Assembly: GCA_008933995.1 (NCBI GenBank)
Contig: WARS01000036.1
Location: 5,990,419 to 6,054,418, forward strand
Source of the DNA: Datnioides undecimradiatus
Lineage: Eukaryota > Chordata > Actinopteri > Lobotiformes > Datnioididae
DNA length: 64,000 nt
Direction: 5' to 3'
Part shown: in pieces, positions 14,795-51,535 of the stretch
Numbering within the stretch: the first letter of the stretch is position 1
Layout: every line of letters begins with the position of its first letter
Notes under the pieces: generated by a model
Database searches by the model: none
Told to the model about the DNA's origin: nothing
Seen by the model: only the letters and a program-made list of their open reading frames with translations
Translations under genes and position numbers: made by a program

Positions 14795-15300
14795 TCAGGG
14801 TTTGATGTCAGAGAAGCTTGTGTAGGTCTCACTGCAGCTGGATGACGTGCTGAGGTTTCCAGAGCCGCTGCCTTCTGTAAGAAACACACACACGTATTGA
14901 AGATTTCAGGATTTCATTGTACTCAGGAAGTCAGCGTGCCTAAGTGTGCTCACACACTTTATTTGGGATAGATTGTTTGAATACCTGAGCTGGTGAGAGA
15001 CTGGCAAGACTTGGACTTTCCAATGAGTGTGATTAGATTTGAAGCTGGGATCCAGCCCTCCTTAGAAGTGCTCAGATTACGCACAAACCTGCATTACCCC
15101 ACACACAGACACACAAATACTATTATAACAGTGCTGCCGTGATATATTTTTTATTTTTAACAAATAGCAGTAAGGATGTTTTCTCACCACTGGCCGTCAT
15201 CCCCCTCCTTAACCAGCTGCACCATGTCTCCACTCTTCACTGCGAGCTCCTGAGCGCCGCCCTTGTCATAGTCGGCCATCACTGTATATTTGCCAGCACA
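14795..15300 (-). other. mcf2l: mcf2l SH3 domain and C-terminus exons
   Basis: Exons 15188-15300 and 14985-15088 encode the SH3 fold (GKYTVMADYDKGGAQELAVK, GDMVQLVKEGDDGQW, GWIPASNLITLIG), with the ALYDY-like, GDDGQW and P-x-x-N/S-x-L elements in order. Exon 14795-14874 adds a Ser/Thr-rich tail ending SETYTSFSDIKP. The SH3 separates MCF2L from MCF2. Confidence 0.92.
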
Positions 15301-24300: not shown

Positions 24301-27300
24301 GTTCAAGTTTAAAAGGGGAAGTCTAGTACAGACAGTTTCACCTGAGCTAACAGGCTCAGCTCACCTCTCTGTAGTTGTGCTCAAAGTTCCTCAGCTGGAG
24401 ACACTGCTCCAGTTTGGTCTGATGTCTGAACCAGAACTCATCGAAAGCCCTTTCTGTCTCATCCAGCTGAGACAGCAATCTGAATGAGGAGCAGAGGAAA
24501 AGATGGGGACAGCAAGAGACAGAGATGGATTGTTCAAATAGAGGCAGTTGAGTAGCTCAAAAGCAGTGGGAGGAGAAATGAACAGAGTAGAACATGCAGC
24601 AGGGATGCTGACTGAGATATCTGGGTGTTTTGTTCTGCCTTTGTGCATGTTATATAGAAGTAATGCCTGCTGACATGGGACTCAGTGCCTTCAGTGTTGC
24701 TTAAAATACCATTCTGACTGACCTCAAAGCACACTGCCTTGCCAAATATTATTCCAAATACACTGATGGCAGAGTTATGACAGCTGGGACCTCACCTGCC
24801 AAGTCTGCTGGCATTAATCTTGGTTACATGGTCCAATCAGAGTAAACTGTGAGGCTGTGAGTATCTTACGTGTATATGTGTGTGTTTTAAATGTCCAGTT
24901 ATTAAAAGGTTAAAGGTAGAAGATAACTATACCATAATCTCATTGTTTACATAGTTAAATTCTAACTAATACACATAAAAATGACCAGAACAAAGAAAGT
25001 ATGTTTTTAAAATATTAATAAAAATGTGTTAAAAAGATATTAAATATATTTTTTAATTTTATTTATTTTACATATAAAATTGATAATTGTAAAGCATCAT
25101 TCACATGAGAAAGTGTATGTGCATTATTTCAGTGTTGATGTTACGTGCTGATGATGGCTGGAACCTGAGCTTTGTCTGAGAAATTACAAAACCAGGTGTG
25201 TTGATCATCTGAAACAGTAAAGTTTCTGTCTGTTGACATTAATGAGCTATTTTCTCACTACAGAATTCATAGACAGGGGCTGGTCTTTAGTCGCCACCCT
25301 GCATCTGTATCACCTGTACTGCTTCTAACCTTTGCACTGTTGCCAGGTTCTCCAGTTCATCCTGGTTCATATTGTGGTCGGGGTCTCTCACAACCGGCTC
25401 ATTGATGCTCTCCAGCAGCCTGCTGCCCTGACCCAGAGCCACCAGCAGATCCTCCTACAGACAGAGGGTGATATCCAAATACATAAATAATATACACAGC
25501 AAACATATTGTGCATAGAGACTGTGTGTTTGTGAATGGGTTTACCTTCATTTTATCCTTCTTGTTGGTGTGTGTGCTCAGCAGGATGGTTGTGGCCTGGA
25601 TTTCATTTGGGAGTTCAGTTTCAGCCAGTTCAGTCCCAAACAACTGCAGGGTCTGAGCTGTTTTCTTTACCATCAGTGCAAACCCCTCAATAGCCTGATG
25701 CACGCAAGACACAACGATGACTGTCAGTGATCCTGCTCGCTCTTTTTAATAGCCACATATTTTACTGAAGCTGCGCTGTTTTGATTTGACTAACTAAAAT
25801 ACATTTTTAATGGAGAGATTCATTCCACAAATACATAATTTATACATGTACATATTTCACTGTATTTATTTAGGTATCTTGCTCATGAAGCATGGTGTAA
25901 TGGCGATGTGGGACAGTGTTACATTACTGAACTCTGAGGTTGTGTATACAGGGTACATACAGTGCGGTGAGAGATCCACTTCTCATGGCAGTACTCCAGA
26001 GTTCCCCCGAGTTCCTGAGTCAGCTGGGTTCGGTCAATGTAAGAGTGCAGCTCAGTTATTGAGCTCAACATGATCACCTGGAAACAGAAACACCTGAAAC
26101 TATTACATTCACAGTACTTGATAAAAATCATACTAACTCTGCTTTTAAGTTATCTGACACTGCGTCTTTAGAGGTGAGAGTAACTGTACGCACCGGCACC
26201 TTCATCTTGAACTCATCCTTGTTGAACTTGAAGAGGATGTCAGAGAGTGTGCGCTGCAGGAGGGCGGTAGGTCTCAGAACCAGAACCAGCTGGAGGTTCC
26301 CTGGGAAGGAGCCCTGAAACCAAAGAGTAGATGGAGACAGTCAGTTGTGCAAAAGAGCAGCCACCCTCCACCATCCTCCACCCTGAGTCAATTAAACATC
26401 ACACTTGAACAGTACACATTCTGTTCTTTCTGCTCACAGCCCGCACTATATATTACTCCTCCCTTTGTCCGTCCCTCTGCGTCCCATGTGAAAACTCCCT
26501 GAAACACATTCAAGCATGTGCATGGAGGGTGCAGTGTGCAAGAGAATGGGAAAGACGTGGGGGATGCAGGGCACCGTCCTGTGGCAGGGACATTAATCTT
26601 CACATCCTCTGAGGCGCTTCTGCATGAATAATGAGGAAGAAAGAGTAAACGCTAACTCATACATGTGTGCATACACACGTGTTCAGGATTTCCTTTACGC
26701 AGCTGGCATCATTGAGACTTTAAAACATATGGTTTTGAAGTATTTGTTAAAACAGTATGTACAGCCATACTCAGCATAAAGCAGGTTTTTTTTGCTTTCA
26801 GAACGTCCATGAACATCCTGATATTTACTGTATTACATATGTAGCTACCACATACTGAGCCCTGCCAATAAAGCCGATAAAATGCCAATTAAAATGTCAT
26901 GATTGACACCAGCTTGACGGAGTAAGTACTGCTGTGAAAGCAGTTGGGTGATGGTTGAGGGTGGACACTGATCTCCCCTCCTGAGGCAATACATTTGTTA
27001 ATGCAACTTTAATTAGCTAATGACCTAAACGGCTGGTTCGCTGGATTGGCTCGCCTTCCCGAGTGAGTTAAGGAATGCTGGTCTAAGCAGAAATGACAAT
27101 GTATACATCGTTAATAGAAACCACGTGGGACCAGCACTGTTAATGGGATTAATGAATCAATTCAGAGTTTGTCCTTGCTGACCTGCCAAAACCAGGACGA
27201 GCACTGCAGAAATGGTTGCTCACCATCTGGAGAAATGAAAGTTATTGTGGGACATACTGCTGTTACTTATAACATGTTAGTGGGTGCTACTATAAAACAA

Positions 27301-27899
27301 AGAGCTGTTATAGTCTGTGTATTTATGGTTAGTGGGTTGGAACATGTACAGCAGTCTCAAAATGAGTATGAAGGACAAGAGTCTATATTATCGTCAATAA
27401 AACTATTAAAAACACATATTTAAGCTGCAATGTTACATAGGCTGGCCTGCTGCCATACGTCTTCCTCGCTCACACACCACATTTGCAGCTGAATATAGCC
27501 CTTGACCGACACACTCCATAAAAGATTTGAGTATACGAGTAATGGTTGCTAAAGTGCCAAGCTGTTTTTAGAATTCATTTAGACTTTTTTTTTTTTTAAA
27601 AAAGATGAAAATATTTATTCATGACCAAACAACTACATCTTTAGCAAGAATGATTGCGGTTTAGGGCCACAAAGAGAATTGAGAAGTCAGAACGTACTGA
27701 GAGATGCACTGAGGCTTTGTTGGTTTTGGCCTTTGTTGACAGAGCAACTCTATGGAATATATCCAGCCTTAACCTTTAAATGTATATCACGGGTTCTACG
27801 CATTCAACCGTGGTGCTTGGATCCGTGGTCGCTAGCAGTCATGGTCATGGTCTACTTGTTCTTTGTTCTTTGTCAATGGTCGGCTGAGAGATAAAAGTA

Positions 27900-27942
<43 letters not shown>

Positions 27943-30900
27943 GAACACAGGAGTGTGCACACACACAATGCCTCAAAGAAGAGCCAGATAAATGACAAGC
28001 GAGGACGTATGCTTTAGGGACTGACGGGAACTCTGCAGACTTAATTAGGACCAGTCTATAAAACACACTTTCTGTCTGTCATCAGATCCAACTCAGCCAT
28101 GCACGGCAACAGGGAGCCTTCCTTAAAACACCCTAGCCCCTTCCTCGTATATACATGTAAGTGTGCACAGTACACAGAAAAGACACAACAAAAAGACAAA
28201 GGAAATCATTTGACAGAGTAAACATTCAATATCCTTGCTTTCTCTCTCTCACACACACACACACACGTGTCCTTACACTTGTACACAATGAGTGAATAAC
28301 CTGGCTGTGTGAATACATCGCGGCGTAATGTAAACATGAACTAGTCTCCGCTACAAATATACAGCAGCAGCTTGTAAAGAGTCAGCTTTCATCATCATCC
28401 ATTTAGCAGCCTGTCTGAATCACCCCAAACAGAACATTATTGCAGGGATGAGTGAATGCCCCCTATTACCAGCCTGTCAGCCTGTAAAAGTCCCCCTTGT
28501 GGGATTAATAAAGCTTGATTTAATTTGAAATGAGCGATGTGGTCGCCCATGTCCCTCGAGACCACGGGTGGTGATATTCATCTCTCATTCTCTCTTTCAG
28601 ATATTTGTCTTTTCGTATATCCATCTGTGCGTTGGGTTGCCGCCTTCAGCGTTCATGATGGCGTGAGGATCTGTCCTAACCAAAACTATTTCATGTACAG
28701 ATTAAGTTACATTTTTAGACTCTATAGGTGCCCGAAATATACAACAATAAACAATGTATGTATTGCACTGGCAGACAGTCATGCTTTTTAACTGCTCATT
28801 GCTTTAGCCCATACAAGCAATATCCTGAGAAATTACGTGATGGGGGTGAGTCTCCCCCATGCCCATGTGTAATATCAACCCACTACACAAAACATGACAC
28901 ACAGACAAGCATTTCAGTTCCTGGAAGAGAAGACTGGAACAAGTGAAACAATAGGGAAAAGAGCAGAAGTCCTCTTTGCTTTAACCATTGCATTCCCAAC
29001 ATAGAGGACATTACAAGTAGCAGCTCTCTGGCTCAATTAAATTACGTGTGGAAAAGAATGGACAGTTTATACAACAGTTTCTTTTCCTGCAAGAGCTGGA
29101 AACTACTGATGACACTGCAAAATATAAACAATGAGTAGGCTTGCAGGCTTCCCCCAGCTGGAGCACCCTTAAAGTAGGCTATATTTTAGCTGTGCACTTA
29201 TCAAACAGACTCAGTGCGTTAATCCTGTTTTGTGCGAGGTGATAGAAGTGAGACATTTAAATGAATGAGTGAACAAAAGAAAAATCATCTCCTTCTGTCT
29301 TTTTTTTTGGGCAAATTTGTCCCTGTAGCTATGGAAACACATGGCAGGCTGTGATGGTGATGGGAGAGAGTTCAAGGATGGGGCTGGCTGATATTAACCC
29401 CAACCCCCTCCTTATCTTTCTCTGAGATTGGCAGTGATATTAGTGTGGTAGCTGTGACAGAGAAAGGGGTGCTGATAAACCATGACCAGTGTCTCTCAAA
29501 GCACAGACAGCACAGACAGATAGTAACTGCATGGTCACACGTACATACACATACGCAAACTTACTGCGATGCGAAGCAGAGTCCCCTTGACGGCCGCCCA
29601 TCGGTCCTGCCTACGATCAATGACCAGGATGAAACCCACGTCCGTTGAAGACACACTGGAACACACAGAGAGGACAGTGCAAATTAAACACCTGTCTATT
29701 ATATCCAGATGGATGACTTGACTTTACAGTGCGGTGGATGATAAGAGATCAACTTTTACCTCACAGGGAGAAAAAATACACCGTATAATCACACACTACA
29801 GGGGTGTGTGGAAAGAAAAGTCTCTACAGCAACATAATGACTCCTAATAGACATTTTAAAGGCCAGAAAAGTATTTGGAAAATAGGAAACAACAACAAAA
29901 TGCAGTTTTCCTTCGCCCTGTGCTCAGTGAAAGAGTGGAAAAGATAATATGCATTCAAAGCTCGTTGTTTTGTTGCTCGTTATCTTCTTAGACAGCTGCT
30001 GCAGTCTGTGAAAGGAGATCCTCTGAAGCACCTCCAGATTTCTTGGCCATCAGCCTCCAGCCCCCCACTTCTCTCCCTTGGCCCCCCTTCCACTGCTGTC
30101 CTCTCGGGTCCCAGGAGAGAGGTGGGCTTTATGGTTCACACACCACTGACAATCAATGGCAACTGCACGTGCAGCTCACTGGTGAGCTCCCCTGTTCATA
30201 CTTCTGTGCATACTTCTGTGCTGCTGCAGCATAGATGCATGTACGTAGGAACGTATATCCAATAAATCAAGTATTTTCCTTCATGTCCACTACTCTGCAA
30301 CAAAACAAAAGCGGTCCTTGGGTCAATAAAAGCAAAATAAAAACACAGGAGAGGAGGATGTGTCTCCGATCCCAGCCTGCTGTGCTGTTTAAAGGAGATG
30401 GAGCCAAATGTTTCAGTCCATCACAGCATCCAGACACCCCCACACACACACACACACTTCTCTGCACTGCATGTATTGGCCATCCAATGAGACACTGGGA
30501 GCTGCAGAGTCACAGCCCTATCACAGGAGAGCTGCAGAGTGATAAGCAGGACAAGTAACCAGTCAGCAGATCTTTACAGATGTTGGGGGAGGGGACGCAC
30601 AGATAGAGGATGCTGTTGTAGGCATGGGGGCTTCATTTATGAGCAAAATACAGAATGTTTATCCATGTCTGCCTCTCACTGTAACATTTACATCCACAGA
30701 CGCACTTCTCTTCCCTTTTTTCTCCACTTTCCCTCCCCTTTCATCTTTTTCCTATTCTTTTCCTCCATCATACCCACTTCTTACCTCCGTACTCAATCAT
30801 CTACATAGACTCTCAGAGACACTCAGGCTTTCAAAGCATAAACTGCTTTACATCTGAGCTGCAGCGGAGGAGGAGGAGGAGGAGGAGGAGGAGGAGAATG

Positions 30901-33841
30901 GGACAAGAGCTTTCCTGCCTCTAAGACATTTACGGCTGCTGAGATGAGAGGATGGTTTATGGTGCTGGGAGAAGAAAACCAGAAGAAGATGATGCTGAGT
31001 GTTGTGTGTGTCAGGTGACTAACTATTATATGTTTTCGTGAATGTATATATATGTATATTAAAAAAAACCCCAATAATATTGTTTTCATATCTGTTATCT
31101 GTTCTGTCTGTTTTAATTTTGTTGGGACTTAATGTATAAAAATGCAAATAATGCTCAAATGCACCATACACTATATACAAACAAATAAACATCATAGTCA
31201 TCATTGCGAGATTCTGTAGTCATATTACGGTAAACGCAAACAAAAATCATAAATGGGCACATGGATGTTGTAAAGCATATTTTTTATGTAGTTATCATAA
31301 ACTGTTAACAAACACAGTCTCACATATAAAATCTAATTTAAATATTTATAGAAGTTGCCTGGCGATGTTGCTGCACATGCACGAGTGTTCCAATAATAAT
31401 TGGATTTCCTGGGACAAAGTGTGAAGCTGTGAGTTGTGAAAAAGCTCTTCCTAATGGATATGCAGAGATGAGGGAAATTTGCTGCATGAATGCATATGCA
31501 GACATAGCAACACACACGCTGCTGCACCTCCCCCTCCTCTGTTGTACTGAACAGAGCAGAGAACGTGTCTGCTTGAATATAAGGGCACTGGTATATTAAA
31601 TTAAAAACAGTCACAGTTTTGATTCTGGGACATTAGTGCCGACTGTATCTCTTTAACGTGGCTTTAATAAAAAAATATTACAGTTAATAAATAATAACAA
31701 GCATGCACATATCCAGTTTGATTTGATTATTCATTAGAAATGAAGTCTGCCTTTATTAATGATCAAAAGTATTAGTTCTGAACCAGCAGCAGATGCTGAA
31801 GGTCAAAATATGGTTGCAGGATATTTGGCCCTTGGAGTGTGTCCTGTTGGGGGTGTCGGTCCCTCAGGTAGCTCAAACCATCTGCCTCTGTATTTGCCAC
31901 AGCTCGAGGCCCTGACAATGACTGGCGACCTCAACAGTCAGACCATGAAGGAGATAAATTTAGACAAACACAGTGGATCCAAAGGATTTTGACCTTTTAA
32001 CCTCATTGCCTACACGTTGAACAGAAACACACTTTACGCAAGAGAATTTTGAAAAGTCAAATGCTGACTAAAGTAAAAATGTCTTGTGAATGAACGTCTG
32101 CTGAACCAGAGCGGACTTGCTGATTAATCCGATTAACGTTTTAATGTTTTGGTTTAAAAGCAAGTGACATTTTTTCTAAACGCCTACATACACAAGCACA
32201 TGCGCCTTCATGTAGACACATGCCCGTGTGAACAGGTGTTCATGTGAATTTATCACACACTTCCTTCAGAGCACTGCTCAGCTGTCTATATGCATTATTC
32301 AGTTAGAAACAGCCAGTTTCTATTCTTATGCACTTAGCCGGTCTAGGCACGCTGAAGAAAGGGTGGGACAGCCTGAGGGAGAGCTACATCATGAAAAAGC
32401 AAGACTAAATTGTTAGGAAAATACCAAAAAACAACAAATGCTTGAGAAATGAGACTGGTGATAGTTCTGTTGAGGAATTACTGGAGAAAAGGATGGTTTC
32501 ATACATCTCCCTCCCCCATGTGGTTTCATGTGGTGGATCCATGTGAACAACAACTGTCTGCAGAAGACTGATAAAGCCCGGGTTATTAATTTGACATCTC
32601 AGTAATAGAGGAATCACAACACTCTGTTCTTACAGATATCTATTTACACAGCCTGTCTCATCCACAGTGCAGGTCCTCTGCCACCAATGTCTTCATGCAG
32701 TGACTTAGTGTTTGAGTTTCCACTGCCACCTACTGGCAGACTGTGTACACAAGGTGTGAGTGAGGCACTTTCACAAACGTCATTTTCATCTCAGTTGCCT
32801 GTGTCACTTCATGACATCTACCTATACTCAATTAATATCTTTGGATCATGGAGGAAAGCCATAGAACATGCAGACTGCACATAGAAATGTTTTAACATGG
32901 AGGATGTTAAAAATTAAGTTTTGATGAACAAGAATTGAAGACAGGAAAAGGAGGTAGTGGAAAGAATCAAGAGAAAACAGGGTGGTAGGGTTAGGGTTAA
33001 ATAATCTCAGTTTTGTTGTGTGTATGTTTGTATGTGTGGTATTCAGTTTGTAAGGGACTTTACCTGGGTACACTTGTCAGGTAGGTCAGCACGTTGTGGA
33101 ACTCTCTGTCAGTGATCTCACCGAACGCTGGGAATTCTGGGAACACGATGATGGGGCTGCCATTATCTCCTCTTCCTCCTAGAAAACAAAAACAAATATT
33201 TGTTTGATGATTGCCGTAGTAATTAAGTAAGGTATTTACATATGTTAATCAGCATAGAAAATCAGTATAACACTCAAAATATGGGTCAGTCTAATATATG
33301 AGGCAAAGATGAAACCATTTAAAGCAATAATAGTGGTCTTGCTGTCTGTCAGTCAGTCTGACAAGGATAATCTCCTCTCATGTACAGTCAGAGTACAGGA
33401 AAGGAAAGCTAAGGAAGAAGCTGTGAACACAGGGGGGCGCTGATGTTGAAGCTGTTCTTGTGATGACAGGAGGGTGTGCAGGGAAAAAAACTGCTGTATG
33501 TCTAACATAACAAATGCTATAGCCTAATAACTCTGTATATTAAAACACACAGCAATAAACAGGGAAAAAAAGAAAGAATAAGGCTCCTAATCAGCTGTTT
33601 TAACAATTAATATGAAAATCACTGAAAAGGTGACATAGGTGGCATCATTCCACATTTTCAGACAAGAGTTTAGTTTTCAATTATATTCATATTCTTCATT
33701 AATTGACAAAATAAAAATGAAAGAGGATGTCAGGAGAAAAAACACAACAACAAAGAGGTGAGACACATCACGTCTGCAATGTTTGTACACAATGAAAGAT
33801 GTTGACACCAGCCAACACATTCAGTCACACCTCTTACAAAG

Positions 33842-40400: not shown

Positions 40401-43400
40401 CAGTGACAGATGAGTGTATAATATCATGAAGGAGGGGTGACAGGGTTCAGATGAGGGTTAAAAAGGGCAGCGTTTGAGGTGATGGGCATGGTGAACTATT
40501 GTTCATCTTACTCATCTCTTTAACCCCATGGTAAAGAAATAGATATATGGTTTGTGTTCAACAAGAAATAACACAGTTATAGTCTGTCCTGTTCTGCCGC
40601 AGCTCATCAAAACATATTCAAAAACATAAGTGCATTGAACCTATGGCTCTGTCTAAATATGGTGCAGTAAAGCATCACTGCTGATTGTTATCACAATGTT
40701 ATGTCTACCGACACAGACACAGACACAGAGCTTCAAACTCCTCTGTGATTTACAGACTCTATGCTTTTTTCTCCTCCTAACAGACATGAGGTGAAACTTC
40801 ACAGCTAACTCGACACAACATTTCGCAACAACAACAGCAAATACAATGTTTTTCCCTGCTTCCTGACAGAAGGTGAGAGCAAAGGTACAGAGCAAGTGAA
40901 CTCAAACAGAAGAGGGCAGATAAATGATGTAGTGCTTAAATAACAGAACGTAACTGTATGGGGGGTACCTTTCCATAAAAACAACCGCTGTTAAAACAGT
41001 TTGATGAAAGACAGTGACAAGGAAAACAATCATTTTATGATAGACGCACAAACATGTGAGAGAACGTGATAAAACACCCGACACCTACCGTACAGCCAGT
41101 GACAGCTGCGAGAAAATCTGTAGTATCTTTCCACCTCCTCCAGAGAGATCCGCACAGGACCCCCACTGTCTTCTATGGGCCACAAACACACATCCAATCC
41201 TTCCTCTGACTCTTCCTCTTCAGTTTGACCATCCACCTGTACTGCTTCAGTCTTTCCATCCTCCACTGTCCCCGAATCAGCCTCCATCTCACCTTCCTGT
41301 TGAGTTTGACTCCCTCCATCTCCACCAGGACTTACTTTTCCATCTCTTTGCTCACCACCAGCAAAAATAGAATCTCCTTGTCCTGTAACCTCAAACCACT
41401 CTAACTCCTCTGTGTCTGAGCTTACGCTCACCTGTCCTGCTAAACTCGGCTCTGAGTTGGCCTCCATGCAGAAGCCGGAGTCTAGCTCAACCTCAACATC
41501 CTCCTCCATTACAAATCCTGAGTCTGCCTTCTCCTCTCCTCCCATGCTGCTGTTCAAGTCCACTTCTTGTTCACTAATCTTCTGCAACACTTGTTCCATG
41601 CAGCTTCACAAAAGTTATCATCGTAACAGTCTCCCTCTCATTCTGACTCCACCTTTCACCAGGCGCCACATTCAGTGTCTCACTCTCTGTCAGGCTGCAG
41701 GTGCTCTACAGCCCGCAGGACGTCACTCAGTAACTGTGCGGACTTCCTATTGCAACCTCGGGTTACCTTCCCTGTAGACAAAAGCTACAGTGTAGCACTC
41801 TACCCCACCCTCCCTGCTCACCCTGCTACCTTTATCCCTCCCCTAAAAGGACAATTACCTAACCCCTCCCAGTTGAATAGCAGAACCTCCAACCTGCTAA
41901 TGTATGACTTAGTCTGACCTCTAAACAGGATCCAGTTTTGACTCTGTAAGACTAGACAGAAACAAAAAGTCATGTATGCTAAGTTATGTCATGCCATGTT
42001 GTGTCACAGTGGTTATGTAGGAGCTGCAGCTCCCCGCCTTTTGCCCAGTGCTCATTTACCTACACCAACAAAACTCTTTTCCACCTTATCTCAGGAGATG
42101 TGGACCAAAAGTACAAAGCCTCCATTCTGACCAGCCCATTCAAACACTACACTGAATCCCCATTTAACTATTCACAGACTATATCCATTCAAAGCCCCTA
42201 TTCTTGGTTATACCACTCAAAAGACTCCATTCTTACAAACTCACTGAAAGACTCAATTCTAATGAGACCTCTCAAAGAAAGACACTGTTTCTTAACAGAA
42301 TGTGGCAATTTAGATTCCATTTCAGTGAGTTGTATAAGAGATATAACTCAGCCAAAACAAGCTAATAGACACCATTCTGTTTGCTAATTCAGCTATTATA
42401 CAAGTTCAGCGTGCTAAAAGGTTTAGGCAAGAGATATTGATTGTGTTAAGTGTGTTTACACGTATGCTTACATGCTGTGTGTGGGTGGAGCGTCATGTTT
42501 AACACATGTTTGCTCTATGACCAAGGGCATGCACAGGGTTATCAGTGTCATAAACCTTGAGAGATAAACAGGAGAGGCATTAAGTTGCCAAAATGTGCAG
42601 CTCAAAGTGAACAAGAGGCTCAAACAAAGGGACAGAACGGTGACCAACTCACAGTCTGAGTCTACTTTAGAGACAGTAATTCACTGTGAGCAGGTACTGC
42701 AGCACTGAGATCAACTACTGCATCAAATACACTTTCCCTCAAGCTCAGAAATCAAAAATCAATCAAAAAGCCAGAAAAAGATATTTTTAAATTAAATGAT
42801 GAAATGAGATATAGCTCATTGTAACACATAACCCTTTTATTGATATCCTTGTTTTCTCCTTGTTAAAGGCACTGCGTACTGTATATTATATATTACTACG
42901 ACTACTAATGATATAAGTGGATGTGGAGCTAGAAAGAAGTGACTACACCTCTGGGGCCCACTCTTCACCTCTGTTTACGTATAGGAGACTGAGTCGTGGA
43001 TGGCCAAGTTGTATTGTGGGTAATATAGGTTTTTAAAAAGGAAGATGTAGAAATTAAAAATAAAATTTTTATCTGCAACATCAATTATTGATCATATTTT
43101 TCAAAAAGGCCTTTATGATGGCAAGAATGTCACAATCGGTATTTGATAGGTTCTAAGTGCTAAATCTCTCAAAGGTACGTTTTCCTCACTGCCAAAGCCA
43201 ACATCATCATCATGTGATCCCTCACTGGCTTCCCACCCACAAACATTGTCCCCAAATCACAAATGCCTAAATGCAACAGAGGAGTGTTCCTCTTCAAAGA
43301 CAGACAGACAGACAATAGATGTCATACAGAGGGCACAGAAGTTTTTGCATGAATGTGTTAAAAAAAAAAGCAAGCAGTAGACAAAAACTATTCTAAAAAA

Positions 43401-46400
43401 GGTGAAAAATATACCTTTCTCCCAAATTTTCCTGCAATACCAGTGCCCACTGGCCTCAGCCTTTAAAACCAAACATCCACTAGATCAACAACATAGTTCT
43501 CCTCTTGTATGGATTCACCTCATGGCTAATGACTTCAACAGAGCTGGGACAAAATGAGAGCTTAAACAGAAACCACACAGCTGGAGGTACAGACAAACAT
43601 AGCACACAAGAACAACGCGCATTTATGTCCAATACATGTTTGCCAGCACATATGCGTATACTGCACATATATACAGACACTCCATAAGTGCCTGGCACAA
43701 CAATACATTCTGAGCAGTGACATTCATCCGGGCACAGAGCAAACATAAATATCTGAGGACAACCTTGGGAAAAAATGAGGCAGCTTCACTAAAATGAGAA
43801 AAGGTAAGGTCTTCACATGCTTTGTGTCAGCAAGCTTTAGGGAAACAGCTTACACACTCACAAAGAGACAAACTCAGCTTTTTGTAGACAGAAAAATACA
43901 CAAGCACTCTTCCCTCACACAGAGAGAAAAATACCATGTATACATCTCCTGACTCACGTGGCTTAAGAGGAACCATTGGCATCCCACTGTCCCATTGAGA
44001 AGCTCTCCTCCTGGTTCTCCTCACCATGCTTTTCTCCCTGCGTGTTAGTGAGACCTGGGAAAGTCCTTTTCTATGCAGAGGCACAAACCAAGGTCTCAAA
44101 GTGGTAACACTCTGCTTGAAAGGACACCAACTTGAAAACTCAGCAGCTTTTATCAGCAGCTCCCACTCCTTTGCACCAGCTCGTCTGCTGCTGAGGTGCT
44201 GCGTGCTGCAGTTCTCTTCATTTGCTGAAGAATCTGCTCCTGCCACGGAAAAATATCGGTGCAGCTGCAGAGATCTGTGCGTTGGAAACTGAATCGACTG
44301 TTTAGGCTGCGCAGTCACGCACTCGCACAGACACAAACTGTTATACACACAAAGACACAGAAACAGCCCAGTGGGGAGCAAGGGAAGCCCACAGGAAACA
44401 CTGTGTGAGGCTCTGGGCATGATGCCCCACAGAACTCTGGCCAGAGCTTCAATCAGAAACATAACTCACACACACACGCGCACACACACACACACACAAA
44501 CACACACACAGCATGTAGTTTTACGAACACTGGAAAGTTATACGTAAGCATGCTGAGTGCACAGAAACATTCATACCAGCACACACACTGTCTCCCTTCC
44601 TCTGTTGGTCTTACCATCCCATTCTCTCCAGGAGTTCTTGCGGCTGCCAGGGCTAAAAGGAAAAGGAGATCCAGAGATGTCCAGGTTCTGGATCAGATGA
44701 CTAAGTCGGTTCATCATCCGGTACGACGCCTCACCGCCCTCCCGCAAAAACTCATGCAGAGACATGAGTGCTGGCTGCTGGTTTCACACACTCAATCAAA
44801 CTCTGTCATCCAGAGAGACCCCTTGCTGCACCTGCAAAGCTCCGCTGCACACTCTAATAAACTCCAAAGCGCAGCTTCCAGTTGCAGGCATAGGAAGGAC
44901 CGTCTTTGTTGCAATAAGTCAGGTCACTCGAAAAAACAAGAGAAGATACTCTCAAACGCATCCTGTGAGTGTATGTCTGCACTGGCTACATATAAGCCCA
45001 GTGTCCTCTGCAGAGCCACATTGGGGACTTGATGAAAAAGCAAAGTGCAATGCTGGCAGAACAAAAAAAAAAAAAAAAAAAAAAGCTGAGTCACTGTCTG
45101 CACAAACTCTGAAAGAATCACTGGAGGTGAGAATGGGCCCAGCTCTGCTCTGCACACACACTCTCACTCTAATGTGCACTCGTACCTCCTTGCAAGTGCA
45201 ACTATTGACAGCTCAGAGTGGCATAGGTTTCTAAGGAAGGACAAGAGGGGAGGAGGGTGCTGAGGGGGGCAGGAGCAGAGGGCAGCCGCTAGAGCACAAA
45301 TCCCCTTCTGCTGCTTAGGCTAATTATATTCCTCTATTCCTCAACTAATCTGCCTTTTCTTTCCCTCTTTCTATCTTCCAAGGTTCTTCCATGTATTCAT
45401 TCCTGGTGAACCAGGAAAGAGGGCAAAAGCATAAAAACTGCAAAACTGAAATACTGCAACACTTTGTGGCGTTTGTGTGAACATAGACAACTCAGGGTGT
45501 GTTGATGCTCCATATGTTATCCGCAACCGAGGTGGAGGAGCAAACGAAGAGGGTCGTCTTTGATGGGAGAAAGAAGGAATGTTTCTGGCAGGCTTTTAAA
45601 TGTGTGTGTTTATGTGTGTCAGTGTGAGTTTGGTCTCGTTTGTGTGGTTAAAGCTGGCAAGCATAAGGCAGCTTGCAGTTTATAGGCTTAGAATAGAGAT
45701 GGGAGAGGAGCTGCACTCTCACACATACTGATGAGGAGGCTGAGACACACAACATCAGCCATCTACCCGCAACCCTCCATCTCTCTGTGATCCCCTCCTC
45801 CCCCTGTTAATCAGGTCTGATCCCTCCTATGAGGCATCTCCCACCTCTTGTATGTTTCATGCATTGTCCTTTATTGACTTTTGCTTTGTAGTCCATCACA
45901 AATCATAAAACAACAAAACTAAAGCTATGCTAGTGACTCTATCAGGTGCTCTGAGCTAAATGCTAACGTCAGCACAACAGGTTTGCTACATAAGCATATT
46001 GTTTCTCTCGACAAATATCATGATAGCAAATGAAAAACCTGGTGTTTATAAGAATTTAAGGCAAAACATTTCAAATAAGGCTTTCAAATTCCTCAGTAAC
46101 CACTTAAAATGTATAATATTTTGTTTGATAGGAACATCTCAATATATTGTCATTAACAAAGTAAAGTGAATATAATATTATCCAAGCACTTTTGCTGGCT
46201 CTGGCTACTTGCGTCTGATCACAGCTGACTACCTGCAGACTAATGGTGACCTGCTGGATCCATCTGGCTATACACCTGCTCTGCCTTCAGGGATGAACGA
46301 CACAGCTAACTTAAGCAGGCTGAATGAACCCCTGACCTCAAGCTAGCAAGGAACCTGACACCCACATTATGTTAACAATACTTCTTACATACAGTATATC

Positions 46401-49400
46401 TGATCTAGAAACCTTTCTTGTTTTGCTTTCCATCAATTAATAAATAAATAAATTAATAAAGTGAATCTTCTTCTTCTTCTAAAACAGTGCAACAGTGAGG
46501 AGACTGATCAATAACAAATGACTGAGATTGAATAGTAACCATGAACTCGTGAGACAGCTTAGCTGCCTGGAGCTCAGACGCTTTTAGAAACCTCAGCTCC
46601 TGGCTCAGCAGCAAGTACACCACTAGACAGTCTCTCGCACAATGCGGAGAGGTGTGAATACATATTAGCCATACTCAGCACATAGAAACCTCTAGCCACA
46701 ACATATAATCTGTCACTATTACTGCATGACAAATAAACAGCCCCGCAAGCATGACGGACAGCAGATGAACACAATCCTGCTGGAAAAGCTGAGACCTGTG
46801 ACTCACTGAACTGGATGTGTCCCTTTAAATCAACTAGAAGTAGGTCAACTGCCCAGTTAGAGAGTCGAAGAGAGTTTGTCTGTGATTACAGCTGCAAGTA
46901 ACAATTTTCATAACTTACTGATCTTCTGCTGTTTTTATTTATAGGTTATGAGGGTTTAACCTCCATCATATTTTAAGGGAGTGGCTGGCAATGTTTTCTT
47001 TCTTTGTCCACGCTGAAATAATACAGCAATTATCAGATCAATTGCGATGACATTTTGTGCAGATATTCATGGCTCTATGAGGATGAACCATTACCATATG
47101 ATTGGCATTTGTGGTTTTGAGTGAAATGCCTATCGAAGAGTTTGCTAGCTATGACTACACTTCAATGTTTATTGCCCATTTTTTAAATGATAGCATGCTA
47201 ACAGGGTAAACTAATACTGTGAATATGGTTAAAACCAGCAGAAAACCAGAGTTATTTATTGATATGAAATGAAAAAACAGGCTACACGTTTCAATTCAGC
47301 ACATGAGATGTGATAAGCTGCTCTGCCCACTCACTGCTGACTGACTGGCTACACTGATAGATGGCTGGAAGGGATAAAAAAAAGAAAATTGAACACGAAT
47401 AGATGTTCCTGATTTTATATCAGTTTAAGATTACTTCACATGCGGTTATGTTCACAGCAGATACAGCTGAAGACCAGCAGCTAATACAAGAGGCAAGGTG
47501 TATTACAGTTTCTTTGTCTATGGGGGAAAAGGAAGACGACAGGGGATTGTTTTCTACAATTTATAACAGAATAGCTCCTTTTCAACGCAGGAGAGGAGAG
47601 CAGTTTGTCAGATTAGACAATGCTAACTCTTGTTCATCCTCAGTTGATTTTGTTTCCCTGAATTTCTCTTTTCCTCGCTCTCTCTTCCTCTCTGCTGTCT
47701 TCTGTGATCAGTGTTAGAGTCTTTCCTCTGAGCCGAATACTGCTCTCATCCTCCTGCCACAGCACATTTCTGTCACATTTCCCTATAAACAGAGTGCTAG
47801 TGATGATTGCATTTCTGCAAATGTTTGGTATAATGTCACACACTTACTGCCTGCATGTATAAAAACAAAAACAAAGTGTCATCATTTTCATTTAATTTTG
47901 TTTTCACGTCTGGAGTCGAGAGATGCAGCTCATAATTCTCTTTCAGAGCTGTAGTTTGTTCGGTTTAATGTCTCTACCTTGGCCACAGCCACAGGCCCTC
48001 CTCATTCAAATCCACCCACTCACTACTTTCACCATCTCTGGTGCTAAGTAGGAAGATGGAGCGAGAGCCCACTCTGCTCTATTAATGACTCTAGCCTCAC
48101 CATCATAGAAAATTCAAGAATTATACAAATGTATAATCCAGTTTGTTAACTGTAAGCTCATTTCCTTGACATTCTCACTCTCTCTCTTTGACACACACCC
48201 TGCAGCTGTACATACACAGTTGCGACAGATACAGCTCAAATGAAACAAACTGCAATACAACATGACAAAATGAGCAGCTGTGGCTTCTCTAAACGAGATC
48301 AGCATCACTGACCACCAATGAAACAACATGAACACAACATGAAATGAAAAGTGTACGGTGCAAAACTGTGCTGTGTGTGCGTGTGGGTGCATTCATGCAT
48401 GTGGGAGTAGCAGTGTGCTAGCAATGGGTGGAAATAGGGAGATCTCTATAAATGGATCAAAAGAGAAGAGAAGCAATCATCACAAATATGGATCAGTCAA
48501 TCATATTAGTGGCATTAGTTTGGACAAAGGAGAAGCATTTGTCCTTCAGTCAGTTGCAATAAACGACAAGGCTGCAGGATCACGACATCACATCGACTGT
48601 CTGGAGAAGGTTTTCTCATGCCAGCTAGAAAGGACTCTAAAATAGCTTTCTTTTCCATGAGTGTGTAATGAATTTGCACTGCAGTCAGAAATGAGGGGCC
48701 TAAAATGTTTCCCTGCAGCAGCTTTGATTATTCATAGAAAATATGAAAGGCCATGAGCATACACAGTGGAGCTCTGAACAAAACACAATAACACAGAGCT
48801 GCAAGCAGAAAATCGAAGAAGTGATGTGGCTACCCGAGGTGGCAAGTCCATGTTAAATGATCAGTGGAGGGCAACAGTAGGGAATAAGACCATACATTTA
48901 CATATATAGGTCATCCTCTGATCACACAAATCCTCTAAGTGCTTAGGGTGGGGTACTGAGGAGGTACAGTATTGTATCACAGCTCGAATGATCTTGTCTA
49001 CTGTGTTTTCACATATATTGAAGACATCAATGTATAGATTACACAGCAGATTTAACATAAAATCAAAATCTGAGTGCATAACAAATCATTTCAGCTCTTG
49101 TGTCACAACACCACAGTCTACCTTTCTCCTACTGGATCAAATAATATGGGTCAATATGAAATTCTTCGCAGCAAGCATAAACTGTATAAGCAGGTCTTGT
49201 AACAAAAACACAGCTTATTGGCCAAACGCCTGTCTGGCTTGAGGCAGGAACAGCTTGAACAGCAGCACATTAAACCTGGAGTGATTTTCTGCAGAAATAA
49301 AGATTTGTAGCTCACTGAGATGATCATCCTGCATTTTACTCCACCTTTATTTGTCCTAAATTCAACCAGGCAACAAATACTATATTAGCTTTTGTCGTGA

Positions 49401-51535
49401 CTGTATACAGATGCATGTATAAACATGCATAATCCTCTGCAATCAACAATAAAATGAGCAGGGACGGTTGCTGATATTGATTGTGCTGTTGTCACTCACC
49501 TATGCTTTGGGTAACCGTCCTTAGCCTCTCCAGCAGCTCCCCCAGGGCCATCTCTTCTGTTTTCATCCACAGGATCATCCTCCAGAGGGACAGCGGAAGA
49601 CCAGCTGCCCAGCCAACAGACACTTTCACGGGAAGAAGAGACAGCTTGACTGTTTTCTCCTAAACGATGCTTCGGAGAGTGGATGATGATGAAGAGGACG
49701 GGAGAGGGGGACTGTTGCAATGGCAAGCCCAACTGAGCCCAGGATGTGACTGTCTGGCTGCTGTCTTGTGTGATACAGCGATGCTGGAGGAAAGAGATGT
49801 GGGAGAGAGGGGGTGTATGCAGCTCAGGAGTGTGGGAATGCTTATGAGAAAAGGATGCTTTCGAGGATGGCGAGGATGCTGCAGGCGAAGATGAGGGAGT
49901 GATGCTGATGAAGCTGCTACGGCTGTGACAGCCCGAGCCGCACTGACGAGTCCTCCGCAGAGGGATGCAGAGCACAAGACGCCGGCGATGGAGCTGGGGA
50001 AGAGGTGGAGCAGAAGCCAGCCTCATTCGCACATGCATGCTTCAGCCTCAGCAAACATGATGGTGCAAACCTGTGCAGATCTGGCAGACAGAGAAGGGGG
50101 AGGGGAAGGTCAGCCTTGCAGTTTCACACAAAAACAGCTGATCCGGGAGTGACACCCAGTGTGGATGTAAGGCATAACAACCTTGTCATGGAAACACACG
50201 CTGCTACCCGACATCCACCATTGGTAATGCTGCATTGCCACCATGTGATGACACCAGGTTATGACAAAAGGGTAAAATCCAGTTACATTCAATAGACTGC
50301 AATAACCTGTTCAAAAATAAATGAATGAACAAATAAACGTTTATGGCCCTTTTGGTTTCTCTTATTTTATATGTTTATATATGGGGTTTATGCTATGAAC
50401 TGAACTAACATTGCTAAACATATTGAAGTTTCACTTGTATTTATCTAATCATATATTGATACATCCATAAAAGACAGGTTCCATCTTTTTTAAGTTGCAC
50501 AATTTTACCTTGCTGTATGTAGTCTAAACGTGAAATGATTTAATTTATGATATGGTGTAATCAGTAATGGATGAGTGGCTGCAATGATTGTGACCAATCC
50601 AGTCTACGAAGGGTGCAAAGTGAGCCCTGCTTTAAGGTGCAAACAGGTAGAGCACAAACATTTTTACCTTTTATGGTAGGATGAGCAAATATAAAGGTGT
50701 TATAACATTAATAATGAAATGTGATGAATTACACCTCCGTTTAATTACAACCCTCTTTGGGATAAGTATGAATTCTCTCATGTAAAAGGTTAATGATGTT
50801 ACTGTTATTGTTGTTTTTATTGTTTTTTTACAGAGAAAGAAAAAAGCAGAAGGCAGAAAAGAAGATGTGATGTGGAAAGAGGTGAACAGAAAAACAGTAG
50901 AAGAGAGGGGAAGAATATAATGTGTAGTGTAAAACATTTAATGTGAAAGGTAAATATCATCATTTTTAATTTATTGTCAGAAAGACCTCCATCCCCTCTT
51001 TGAAAATCTCTTTGCCTCTTTGCTTTCTGAGGTATGCCAAAAAAAAAAAATCCCATTAAGAAGAAGACAAGGCTGTGTGTGAGTGAAAAGGTTTGGCACA
51101 GAGTTTCATTCACAGCAGGACTCAGTCTCAAGGTGATGACAGTTCCTCATAGCACTGGAGTCGTCATCTGCTACTGTCACTGGATTTGAATGACTTTAAA
51201 AGAACTCATCTTTCAGCGCACTCTGGTAAAAGAGCTGTGAAACCTCACGAACAAAAGATGTGAAACAATAGTATCAATGTTTTGTGCTATGTGACCCAAG
51301 CAACCTTTGATTCTTACCGTCAGGTTTTAAATACCCACATATATGAGCTGTGCTCACAATTAGATATACCTACATACGTCAATATTTTGATATCAGATCA
51401 TTTAATAAACCCTTCAAGAACAAGCTCACCTGATCCCACCTCTCTGAGAGCTTCCAGATTCATCAGACACACATACTCCTCACTCTCATCCTGCTTTTTC
51501 TTCTTCCTCAGACCGTCAAAGTTACAATCAACCAT
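14795..51535 (-). CDS. mcf2l: MCF2L/Dbs-type Rho guanine nucleotide exchange factor, complete, with several start exons
   Basis: Thirty-one common exons run from 34873-34956 down to 14795-14874 (stop 14795-14797). Five candidate first exons are listed separately. With first exon 51430-51535 the CDS is 3540 nt (1179 aa); with 41089-41599 it is 3945 nt (1314 aa). Approximate domain order in the 1179-aa form: CRAL-TRIO 45-210, spectrin-like coiled region 270-560, DH 610-800, PH 805-930, Ser/Pro linker, SH3 1082-1150. The family activates Cdc42/RhoA by nucleotide exchange, and its CRAL-TRIO domain binds phosphoinositides and restrains activity. The SH3 domain and the linked atp11a identify MCF2L rather than MCF2. 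The human protein is about 1140 aa. The gene is tandem with atp11a in the same orientation. Confidence 0.95.
15532..15795 (+). mobile_element. Possible solo-LTR-like or inverted-repeat element in mcf2l intron
   Basis: The segment is bounded by TTGGAGTCC (15532-15540) and its inverse GGACTCCAA (15787-15795). Inside, on the + strand, are TATAAAA at 15667-15673 and AATAAA at 15753-15758, only 80 nt apart, as in a compact retroviral LTR. No coding sequence, primer-binding site or target duplication was confirmed. It lies antisense to mcf2l. Confidence 0.3.
15846..18304 (-). other. mcf2l: mcf2l PH-SH3 linker exons, likely alternatively spliced
   Basis: Exons 18232-18304, 18007-18113, 17750-17842, 16640-16705 and 15846-15955. 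They encode a Pro/Ser/Lys-rich, probably disordered linker (for example KKRFTLQGFSNLKAQK, SPTSPDHKTKRQSDPTPFGF and NKASLSLDASEEHEGYSSAE). The 66-nt exon 16640-16705 enters and exits in the same phase (22 residues), so it can be skipped without a frameshift: both AQK-G-SPTSP and AQK-G-WNKAS read through. Confidence 0.85.
17365..17625. mobile_element. Teleost-type nonautonomous interspersed repeat relic
   Basis: The left end (gaaggtcaatattgatct, then tacatctgtcc) is roughly the inverse of the right end (gacatgagagtggtatc). The interior reads agcttagcatgaacactgg, aaacagctagctctg, ccagcaccactaaagc and ctggtttatttaacc. This word order matches a very common fish short interspersed element that I know by sight; the family name was not determined. 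Confidence 0.55.
18436..19809 (-). other. mcf2l: mcf2l PH domain exons
   Basis: Exons 19588-19809, 19396-19488 and 18436-18514. They encode LGKLLMQGSFSVWTEHKKGH, RFKPMQRHLFLHEKALLFCK, KKFEIWCNSREEVYIVQ and KTTWVNEIRKVLTTQLEACR. The last is the C-terminal alpha helix of the PH fold with its conserved Trp. Phases are 0, 0, 0 and 1. Confidence 0.92.
20116..21561 (-). other. mcf2l: mcf2l DH (RhoGEF) domain exons
   Basis: Exons 21476-21561, 21233-21299, 21028-21143, 20723-20792, 20551-20643, 20349-20441 and 20116-20241. Helix CR1 reads RRHVMNELLETERAYVEELL, CR3 reads LLKPVQRITKYQLLLK, and the final helix reads ILGILKAVNDSMHLIAITGY. The conserved Glu of CR1 and the Lys/Gln/Arg of CR3, which contact Rho GTPases in this family, are all present, so a catalytically active domain is expected. 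A preceding 62-nt exon at 21657-21718 encodes HRAQQEKHSSDTDSGNNCEK. Confidence 0.92.
22661..25694 (-). other. mcf2l: mcf2l spectrin-like coiled region exons
   Basis: Exons 25545-25694, 25330-25454, 24365-24479, 24158-24277, 23222-23413, 22940-23131 and 22661-22820 encode charged helical sequence, including ETERAFDEFWFRHQTKLEQC and WVDDGIYLLASQPVDKCQSH. Two adjacent exons are each exactly 192 nt (64 codons). The region ends with QKQTSMQEMFDKRRVSLKKL and KQTRPVQPVAPRPEAF, the usual linker in front of the DH domain. Confidence 0.88.
23490..23740. mobile_element. Possible degraded interspersed repeat
   Basis: The intronic block around ccataggtggtgctacatag, with a T-rich flank and no coding potential, resembles degenerate fish repeats that contain a taggtggcgct core. 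Recognition is by general resemblance only. Confidence 0.3.
27901..27939. repeat. (CA)n microsatellite
   Basis: An uninterrupted AC/CA dinucleotide run of about 19-20 units in a mcf2l intron. Confidence 0.95.
28485..28520 (+). mobile_element. Relic of a retroposon 3' tail
   Basis: The words cccccttgtgggattaataa and agcttgatttaa resemble the shared 3' end (gggattaataaag) of fish LINE-derived retroposons. Only the tail is recognisable. Confidence 0.3.
29656..33063 (-). other. mcf2l intron, 3.4 kb
   Basis: No exon is supported. It holds a GGA trinucleotide run at 30867-30896 and A/T-rich stretches. Confidence 0.7.
30867..30896. repeat. (GGA)n microsatellite
   Basis: About ten GGA/GAG units in the mcf2l intron. 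In the mRNA sense they read as a C/T-rich tract. Confidence 0.9.
33842..33868. repeat. (CA)n microsatellite
   Basis: CA run of about 13 units in the mcf2l intron between the first two common CRAL-TRIO exons. Confidence 0.9.
34435..34640 (+). repeat. Copy A of a ~200-bp duplicated intronic segment
   Basis: Shared landmarks with copy B, in the same order and spacing: tcacagtcacagacac, tcaaagtaacag, aagagcaatatt, tctgactgtg, cggacagaatgagcac and catcattaacacactggg. Similarity is clear but imperfect, so the duplication is old. Confidence 0.75.
36606..36815 (+). repeat. Copy B of a ~200-bp duplicated intronic segment
   Basis: Landmarks matching copy A: tcacagtgacagacac, tcaaagtaacag, aagagcaatatt, cctgactttg, cagacagaacgaccac and catcattaacacactggg. 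The copies are direct repeats 2.2 kb apart in mcf2l introns, on either side of the shared exon 34873-34956. Confidence 0.75.
37441..37477. repeat. (TC)n(CA)n compound microsatellite
   Basis: A TC dinucleotide run passes directly into a CA run, inside the mcf2l intron. Confidence 0.9.
41089..41599 (-). CDS. mcf2l: mcf2l alternative first exon 1e (long acidic N-terminus)
   Basis: An ATG at 41597-41599 opens 170 codons, starting MEQVLQKISEQEVDLNSSMG, that end ...VERYYRFSRSCHWLY with donor TACG|gtaggtg. The spare G plus AT gives Asp (LY-D-EIMQLDSS). The segment is strongly acidic and carries four DSG motifs (ADSGFVMEE, LDSGFCMEA, ADSGTVED, EDSGGPV). The 1314-aa isoform is the longest. It is the proximal start exon, 6.1 kb from the shared exon. 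Confidence 0.8.
41600..43957 (-). other. Region between mcf2l start exons 1e and 1d
   Basis: This contains the presumed promoter of exon 1e (first few hundred bases) and a degenerate 27-bp tandem repeat. No other gene was seen. Confidence 0.6.
42117..42290 (+). repeat. Degenerate 27-bp minisatellite
   Basis: Units such as gactccattcttacaaactc-actgaaa and gactcaattctaatgagacc-tctcaaa follow each other at 27-bp spacing, and a further copy starts at gcctccattctgacc. Since 27 is a multiple of three, the + strand reads as a 9-residue peptide repeat (DSILTNSLK, DSILMRPLK, ASILTSPFK). Confidence 0.55.
43958..44027 (-). CDS. mcf2l: mcf2l alternative first exon 1d
   Basis: An ATG at 44025-44027 opens 23 codons, MVRRTRRRASQWDSGMPMVP then LKP, ending at CCAC|gtgagtc. 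The leftover base C plus AT gives His, so the junction differs from the other forms (LKP-H-EIMQLDSS). The very basic RRTRRRAS start resembles a polybasic membrane motif or PKA site (inference). The frame stays open upstream of the ATG, so the start is chosen as the nearest Met and may be wrong. Confidence 0.5.
44467..44510. repeat. (CA)n microsatellite, interrupted
   Basis: CA run with CG and AA interruptions, between mcf2l start exons 1d and 1c. Confidence 0.9.
44615..44765 (-). CDS. mcf2l: mcf2l alternative first exon 1c
   Basis: An ATG at 44763-44765 opens 50 codons: MSLHEFLREGGEASYRMMNR, LSHLIQNLDISGSPFPFSPG and SRKNSWREWD. It ends at GATG|gtaagac with one base G, again making Asp with AT of exon 34873-34956. 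The protein would be 1194 aa. There is a candidate Ser-rich SRKNS kinase site. The upstream 45.06-45.09 kb stretch has an A22 run. Confidence 0.7.
45063..45084. repeat. A22 homopolymer
   Basis: A perfect A run upstream of mcf2l start exon 1c. It could be a retroposon tail, but no body was recognised beside it. Confidence 0.85.
47030..47165 (+). mobile_element. Teleost interspersed repeat relic
   Basis: The word order gatgacattttgtgcagata, ttcatggctctatgaggatg and catttgtggttttgagtgaa, followed by atgcctatcgaag, matches a very abundant fish repeat that I know by sight. Related words (gctaaatgctaacgtcagc) occur at 45950-45975. The copy is degraded and noncoding. Confidence 0.55.
49500..49578 (-). 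CDS. mcf2l: mcf2l alternative first exon 1b
   Basis: The frame reads MILWMKTEEMALGELLERLR then TVTQSI and ends at ATAG|gtgagtg, one base into a codon, joining AT to give Asp. The first ATG is 49576-49578 and a second in frame is 49564-49566 (MKTEEMALG); the true start is uncertain, because I saw no stop in the short stretch I read just upstream of the first ATG. The predicted amphipathic helix (ALGELLERLRTV) resembles a short N-terminal helix. The region upstream to about 50110 is comparatively GC-rich and is the likely promoter. Confidence 0.7.
49579..50110 (-). promoter_or_regulatory. Presumed promoter and 5' UTR of mcf2l exon 1b
   Basis: This is the most GC-rich, CpG-containing stretch in the mcf2l 5' region, directly upstream of exon 1b. 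One - strand frame stays open for 180 codons, but its phase at the exon 1b donor does not fit the shared exon, so I read it as UTR/promoter rather than coding. Confidence 0.45.
51430..51535 (-). CDS. mcf2l: mcf2l alternative first exon 1a (most distal)
   Basis: An ATG at 51533-51535 opens a 35-codon frame, MVDCNFDGLRKKKKQDESEE then YVCLMNLEALREVGS, ending at a TCAG|gtgagc donor with one base G. G plus AT of exon 34873-34956 makes Asp, giving VGS-D-EIMQLDSS. The lysine cluster (KKKK) could favour membranes or nuclear import (inference). It lies about 0.4 kb past the proposed atp11a poly(A) signal. Confidence 0.75.

What the first reader, a model, noticed from the sequence alone, without database searches (positions are those of the whole stretch)
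41089..51535. Five alternative mcf2l first exons that all exit in phase 1 to one shared exon
Five separate ATG-led - strand frames (51430-51535, 49500-49578, 44615-44765, 43958-44027, 41089-41599) each end one base into a codon at a canonical donor, and each joins exon 34873-34956 in frame before EIMQLDSS. Their N-termini differ completely: lysine-rich, amphipathic helix, Ser-rich, polybasic and 170-residue acidic. Since the N-terminus lies next to the autoinhibitory CRAL-TRIO domain, this looks like a promoter array that sets membrane targeting or inhibition by tissue. Multiple MCF2L N-termini are known in mammals. This set of five in a fish is read directly here, but their expression is inferred.
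Basis: partly seen in the sequence, partly recalled or inferred. Interest (0 to 1): 0.75.

Follow-up and report, generated by a model that had tools for sequence, protein, structure and literature searches.

The report
Four, not five, mcf2l starts
This fish gene for a cell-shape regulator (mcf2l) has a set of alternative starting exons, as its mammalian relatives do; four of the five reported ones are backed by other fish, while the fifth is a decayed scrap of an unrelated gene.

Summary
But ATG + open frame + phase-1 donor alone is weak evidence: 26 such candidates on this strand of 22 kb, 16 on the other. Homology decides. Among 225 DBS-type proteins retrieved, 46 carry the 49.5 kb exon type, 61 the 44.7 kb, 4 the 44.0 kb, 104 the 41.6 kb, 10 something else and none the 51.5 kb. 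The 51.5 kb exon is instead a decayed copy of the 3' end of a liprin-beta-1 gene (76-77% DNA identity to contig C334 over two stretches; its splice sites line up with the liprin ones, its ATG has no counterpart). The closest paralogue (C486) carries a 41.6 kb-type exon and another front exon ("MALN" type, also in a trout), both with phase-1 donors, so the arrangement probably predates that duplication. Alternative front peptides before the CRAL-TRIO domain are already published for Kalirin, Trio and human MCF2L. Verdict: four alternative first coding exons of a known kind; one artefact; separate promoters, tissue use and function not shown.

The parts
49500..49578 (-). alternative first coding exon 'e49', MILWMKTEEMALGELLERLRTVTQSI, donor GTGAGT, phase 1
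   Evidence: 46 of 225 retrieved DBS proteins carry this type, out to Lepidogalaxias (P0111)
49579..49617 (-). 13 codons upstream of the e49 ATG, in frame (VGWAAGLPLSLWR); conserved leader or possible longer N-terminus
   Evidence: same or nearly same in models P0065, P0067, P0105; 28 of 28 residues identical to P0067 across the ATG; in-frame stop 28 codons upstream here
44615..44765 (-). alternative first coding exon 'e44b', MSLHEFLREGG...NSWREWD, donor GTAAGA, phase 1
   Evidence: 61 of 225 proteins, including a salmonid P0226 and a cyprinid P0199
43958..44027 (-). alternative first coding exon 'e44a', MVRRTRRRASQWDSGMPMVPLKP, donor GTGAGT, phase 1 (joins as HEIMQ)
   Evidence: P0112 Sparus, P0223 and P0225 Epinephelus fuscoguttatus, P0227 Seriola aureovittata (4 of 225) plus shorter P0212 Xiphias
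41089..41599 (-). alternative first coding exon 'e41', 170 residues, net charge -35, donor GTAGGT, phase 1
   Evidence: 104 of 225 proteins, 85 of them found by the direct search, percomorphs, Lampris, hake and salmonids
41090..41155 (-). conserved C-terminal core of e41 (VRISLEEVERYYRFSRSCHWLY)
   Evidence: in a 43-row alignment nearly invariant columns of this exon fall in the core, apart from one Leu shortly before it; present in salmonids and, with a phase-1 donor, in paralogue C486
34873..34956 (-). shared exon 2 (EIMQLDSSPLRAADITPDLKRQFAFLS), acceptor in phase 1
14959..33178 (-). remaining 27 shared coding exons of mcf2l (some boundaries and the C-terminal end approximate)
   Evidence: spliced alignment, no stop in 1072 aa; Pfam CRAL_TRIO_2, Spectrin_5, RhoGEF, PH, SH3
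51430..51535 (-). 'e51': not supported as an mcf2l exon; decayed liprin-beta-1 exon with inherited splice sites and an ATG that has no counterpart in the liprin copy
   Evidence: 76% DNA identity over 51453-51586 to C334:6359888-6360023; alignment; C334 gene matches Liprin-beta-1
51065..51232 (-). second piece of the same relic: counterpart of the last liprin-beta-1 coding exon and following sequence
   Evidence: 77% identity to C334:6360468-6360641, same order and orientation

Best explanation
The window holds a teleost mcf2l (DBS) gene with at least four alternative first coding exons (49.6, 44.8, 44.0 and 41.6 kb), each splicing in phase 1 to a shared exon 2 just before the CRAL-TRIO (Sec14) domain. 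Most likely each has its own transcription start, and each product begins with a different front peptide: short helix-forming (e49), amphipathic helix plus Ser-rich tail (e44b), short basic (e44a), or long acidic, probably disordered tail ending in an amphipathic YYRF core (e41). By analogy with Kalirin these set how the Sec14 domain meets membranes or lipids and so where the RhoGEF acts. Exon structure and conservation are shown; separate promoters and function are inferred. The 51.5 kb candidate is a liprin-beta-1 relic.
For: Frames, donors, phases; gene model and domains. Homologous first exons in named fish DBS isoform models. Some species show three types among retrieved rows: Sparus aurata e49/e44a/e41, Epinephelus fuscoguttatus e49/e44a/e41, Dicentrarchus labrax e44b/e49/e41. 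The closest paralogue C486 has a homologous exon 2, an e41-type exon and a MALN-type exon, both with phase-1 donors; 0 of 500 shuffled queries reached either score. MALN type also in Oncorhynchus clarkii P0221, which is closer to the window gene than to C486. Precedent for mechanism in PMC9823006 passages and PMC3048553 passages.
Against: No transcript data here; the fish proteins are database gene models. I saw no species with all four types among the retrieved rows. e44a rests on 4 representatives in three species plus one partial model. No CpG signal marks the starts. Helical moment of e49 is only moderate (0.42, above 88% of windows of DBS proteins). Both AlphaFold models were poor (pTM 0.34 and 0.36), so no docking of a front peptide is shown. 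10 of 225 proteins start otherwise, some at an internal Met of exon 2, so the set is not complete. In C486 no convincing e49, e44b or e44a counterpart was seen.
Confidence: 0.8

Rival explanations
1. All five are mcf2l first exons: the liprin-beta-1 relic at 51.5 kb, with its inherited acceptor and donor, has been exapted as an mcf2l exon.
For: Open frame of 35 codons, strong donor (11.7 bits) and acceptor-like site 2 bases before the ATG (8.5 bits), same strand, joins exon 2 in phase 1.
Against: 0 of 225 retrieved DBS proteins have it; its best alignment score over all of them is 40, and shuffled versions against single random members reached 43 (300 trials). Both splice sites are explained by ancestry from liprin-beta-1; the ATG has no counterpart there, and the copy has lost two blocks. 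Against this: clustering at 90% identity could hide minor isoforms.
Confidence: 0.06
2. Fewer promoters than exons: some of the four (e44b and e44a lie 587 bases apart) are used from a shared or non-coding upstream first exon, so the choice is by splicing.
For: Models that start at MQLDSS imply non-coding first exons. An acceptor-like site of 9.4 bits lies 1 base before the e49 ATG, and each of the four has a site of 6.6-9.5 bits within 400 bases upstream. CpG content is above the 90th percentile of the window in places between 54,751 and 56,000, upstream of all four.
Against: Kalirin precedent is by promoters; 13 codons before the e49 ATG are conserved in frame in other models, so an acceptor right at that ATG is unlikely. 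The strongest CpG windows of the region are elsewhere, near 12.0-13.5 kb.
Confidence: 0.25
3. The front exons are real but mostly inert: variable leaders without functional difference.
For: e41's acidic part varies in length and sequence between fish.
Against: e49 varies little between fish; the e41 core is conserved and present in a paralogue; Kalirin front peptides change lipid binding.
Confidence: 0.12

Closest known systems
Kalirin (KALRN) alternative first exons 1A-1D
   Different: A different gene; four promoters, with use in mouse brain regions measured. Sequence homology between Kalirin and mcf2l front peptides was not tested.
Human MCF2L isoforms with different front peptides
   Same: Same gene family; PMC9823006 (passages) says alternative splicing gives MCF2L front peptides of very different properties, and isoforms 4 and 9 begin with a predicted amphipathic helix, as e49 may.
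   Different: Human front peptides were not retrieved, so one-to-one homology of exons was not tested.
Teleost DBS (mcf2l) isoform models
   Same: Carry the same four front peptides at the same junction.
   Different: Other fish models add types not detected in this window (MTYTERYNVIFRDS, MALNQVSLLCHNV); a very short one (MHHRT) is too short to judge.
Liprin-beta-1 (PPFIBP1) terminal exons
   Same: Parent of the 51.5 kb candidate, splice sites included.
   Different: The C334 gene keeps its reading frame there; the window copy has lost blocks of it and its stop is out of register.

Membership tests
MCF2L/DBS RhoGEF | CRAL-TRIO, spectrin-like, RhoGEF, PH and SH3 domains in this order | tested here: met
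   on the 1072-aa spliced model
MCF2L/DBS RhoGEF | nearest database relatives are DBS proteins | tested here: met
   most of the 120 listed relatives bear the name DBS or MCF2-like; a few are only 'hypothetical' or unnamed; no tree built
Kalirin-type alternative front peptides | several first coding exons joining one exon before the CRAL-TRIO domain | tested here: met
   4 of 5 claimed exons, by homology to gene models
Kalirin-type alternative front peptides | separate promoters with tissue-specific use | not testable with these tools
   no transcript start data; CpG profile uninformative
Kalirin-type alternative front peptides | front peptide changes lipid or membrane interaction | not testable with these tools
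   only charge and helical moment computed; AlphaFold models too poor
mcf2l first exon (51430-51535) | occurs in other fish DBS proteins | tested here: not met
   0 of 225; the first search drew words from it too; 90% clustering can hide isoforms
Liprin-beta-1 3' end (51065-51586) | collinear DNA similarity to a liprin-beta gene including splice sites | tested here: met
   gene identity by PDB 3tad_C Liprin-beta-1, E 1.8e-55; the splice sites of the C334 gene are inferred from frame and consensus, not from transcripts

The most novel reading that the evidence does not exclude
The mcf2l front-peptide array is older than the duplication that gave the window gene and its C486 paralogue, and the short core V-ISLEEVE-YYRF---C--L at the end of the acidic exon is an undescribed regulatory element, kept at the same junction in both paralogues, that acts on the Sec14 domain while the acidic tail before it is free to vary.
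Probability: 0.35. Interest if true: 0.5.

Novelty: new member of a known kind. Interest (0 to 1): 0.3.

Why it matters
It suggests that the choice of N-terminus before the Sec14 domain, studied in Kalirin, is an old and conserved property of mcf2l in fish; in zebrafish, loss of Mcf2lb disturbs rosettes of the migrating lateral line (PMC10820872, abstract start and passages). It gives four named exons to disrupt one at a time. It also shows how a relic of another gene, with splice sites intact, can look like a perfect first exon by eye.

Tried and rejected
Rejected: e51 as a conserved mcf2l exon (above); e51 as kin of e49 (an apparent similarity in the consensus was dropped once liprin homology was found). 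Rejected: ATG frames with donors as sufficient evidence. Uninformative: AlphaFold of P0078 and P0146 (no fold search was made), CpG profile (87), Rfam at gathering thresholds (43, no match), tRNA scan (11, none). A weak match of a Xiphias peptide at 37202-37128 contains stops. Pfam found no family in two short P4-ATPase pieces of the neighbouring gene (67), nor in the liprin exon that corresponds to e51 or in another C334 piece (51). Papers: MCF2L with 'alternative first exon' gave 0, with 'first exon' 17 listed (13), with isoform, N-terminal and alternative promoter 1 (28), with Sec14 and isoforms 6 (77). In these listings I saw no paper about MCF2L promoters; of them I opened passages of PMC9823006, PMC6058387 (uses 'alternative promoter' for CLU) and PMC8210018 (a short human isoform) only. 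A search for alternative first exons, teleost and RhoGEF listed 10 of 69, none relevant by title. Limits: two of three protein searches used the front peptides as queries, so type counts are not frequencies; the third lists the best 120 of 3668, and clustering at 90% hides isoforms. Whether C486 is the whole-genome-duplication partner was not tested with a tree; one cyprinid (P0199) matched both genes equally.

Full report
What is in the sequence. The window comes from a 581-Mb genome in which it lies at C468:5990419-6054418; its nearest protein relatives suggest a spiny-rayed fish. Upstream on the same strand is a P4-ATPase exon (63237-63590) whose best PDB matches are ATP11C (by gene order in human, recalled, atp11a), and at the low end of the window an RCC1/BTB gene.

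How much that proves. On the minus strand between 35,000 and 57,000 there are 26 phase-1 donors of 4 bits or more behind ATG-led frames of at least 20 codons (several share one ATG), and 16 on the plus strand. Five frames with the right phase are therefore not remarkable by themselves, and agreement in phase is a condition of the selection. Relatives have to decide.

Four exons have relatives. A search with the four short exons placed before the shared protein, scoring only residues 1-134, returned 107 proteins at E<=10 of 334 candidates; a search with the 41.6 kb exon returned 85 of 771 candidates; a neutral search with an alignment of four DBS proteins listed the best 120 of 3668. Of the 225 distinct proteins in hand, classified by best local alignment of the part before GGRG, 61 carry e44b, 46 e49, 104 e41, 4 e44a, 0 e51 and 10 something else. 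One of the 225, P0016, joins e44b and e41 material in one model and is counted once, by its better score. e44b is found out to a salmonid and a cyprinid (P0226, P0199), e49 out to Lepidogalaxias (P0111), e41 to salmonids, a hake and Lampris; e44a in Sparus, Epinephelus and Seriola, with a shorter Xiphias model. The residue at the junction fits: e44a models read HEIMQ or YEIMQ, the others mostly DEIMQ. By the names some species show three of the four types; I saw none with all four.

The fifth exon is something else. The DNA of e51 and its flank has one other match reported in the genome, C334:6359888-6360023, 76% identical. None of the 24 matches of an MCF2-family RhoGEF-PH query lies on C334. 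Neighbouring C334 exons encode SAM domains and match Liprin-beta-1 in the PDB, 3tad_C, at E 1.8e-55. A second stretch, 51065-51232, matches C334:6360468-6360641 at 77% in the same order and orientation. In the alignment the acceptor and donor of e51 fall on what frame and consensus show as the splice sites of a liprin exon, its ATG faces sequence without an ATG, two blocks of the liprin exon (16 and 37 bases) are missing, and the last liprin coding exon is present with its stop out of register. The liprin exon is also kept at 73% protein identity on C471 and C472, beside SAM exons of the same kind, so liprin is the source. e51 is thus a decayed segmental copy, and its fine splice sites are inherited. 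That it was later used by mcf2l is possible but has no support here.

Age of the arrangement. The closest paralogue in this genome lies on C486. It has a counterpart of exon 2 with the same split codon (read). Upstream, at 5100368-5100439, there is a match to the end of e41 (13 of 24 residues) whose frame reaches a phase-1 GTGAGT at 5100435, and at 5105206 a frame MALNRVSQLCHDITRLWLQLKMMT that ends in phase 1 at GTAGAG (read) and matches the front peptide MALNQVSLLCHNVSNLWLKLQNRT of a cutthroat trout DBS model (P0221). That trout protein is nearer to the window gene than to C486 (843 against 750 bits). None of 500 shuffles of either query reached the observed score in the same 50 kb. The simplest reading is that several front exons existed before the two genes parted. 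No convincing e49, e44b or e44a counterpart was seen in the 50 kb of C486, and no MALN exon in this window, so the set turns over. The e41 core is also the constrained part within fish: in a 43-row alignment of mostly e41-type proteins the nearly invariant columns of this exon are V132 to L152 of P0146 plus one earlier Leu.

How it probably works. In Kalirin, four promoters give alternate first exons; exon 1C makes an amphipathic helix that lets the CRAL-TRIO domain bind phosphoinositide liposomes, with the exon 1B peptide, which is acidic, that binding is lost, and the same paper says MCF2L isoforms have front peptides of very different properties, isoforms 4 and 9 with a predicted amphipathic helix; [quoted passage not shown] Region-specific promoter use in mouse brain is in PMC3048553 (passages). 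The fish peptides differ in the same way: best 18-residue helical moments are 0.60 for e44b, 0.54 for e41 (in its core), 0.44 for e44a and 0.42 for e49, higher than 100, 99, 90 and 88% of windows in DBS proteins, against 57% for e51; net charges are 0, -35, +5 and -1. Both AlphaFold models were poor (mean pLDDT 52.7 and 48.5, pTM 0.34 and 0.36): e49 came out helical at pLDDT 38-49, the acidic part of the e41-type protein at 22-26, as disordered segments do, and the core helical at 33-51, so no contact with the Sec14 domain can be claimed.

Verdict. Four alternative first coding exons of mcf2l are supported by homology; that they have separate promoters is inferred. The kind is known. The fifth is a liprin-beta-1 relic. 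The useful additions are the removal of that false exon, the spread of the front peptides through teleosts, and the sign that the arrangement is older than the duplication of the gene.

Noticed in passing
window 51065-51586 (-) and G000:C334:6359888-6360641: Relic of the 3' end of liprin-beta-1 between the P4-ATPase gene and mcf2l, 76-77% identical in two stretches to the gene on C334, with sequence between the exons kept in part.
   Followed up: yes
L029-L033 (G000:C486:5080001-5130000), near 5100368 and 5105206: The closest mcf2l paralogue has an e41-type and a MALN-type front exon, both with phase-1 donors.
   Followed up: partly
window 49579-49617: The 13 codons before the e49 ATG are conserved in frame in three other fish models, which extend the protein upstream; a longer N-terminus, non-ATG start or conserved leader is possible.
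   Followed up: partly
window about 41293 and 41356 (-): Two internal phase-1 donors in e41 score higher (11.3 and 9.0 bits) than the used one (5.5); Siniperca models show a shortened e41 followed by other residues.
   Followed up: no
window 43827-44462 (-): The frame of e44a is open for 146 codons upstream of its ATG; no relative of that part was sought separately.
   Followed up: no
window 54751-56000: CpG content rises upstream of all front exons; possible site of a non-coding first exon, since some fish models start at an internal Met of exon 2.
   Followed up: no
G000:C471 6992055-6993489 and C472 6989238-6990673: Two contigs carry equally scoring liprin-beta exons at similar coordinates; perhaps a duplicated or haplotype contig in the assembly.
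   Followed up: no
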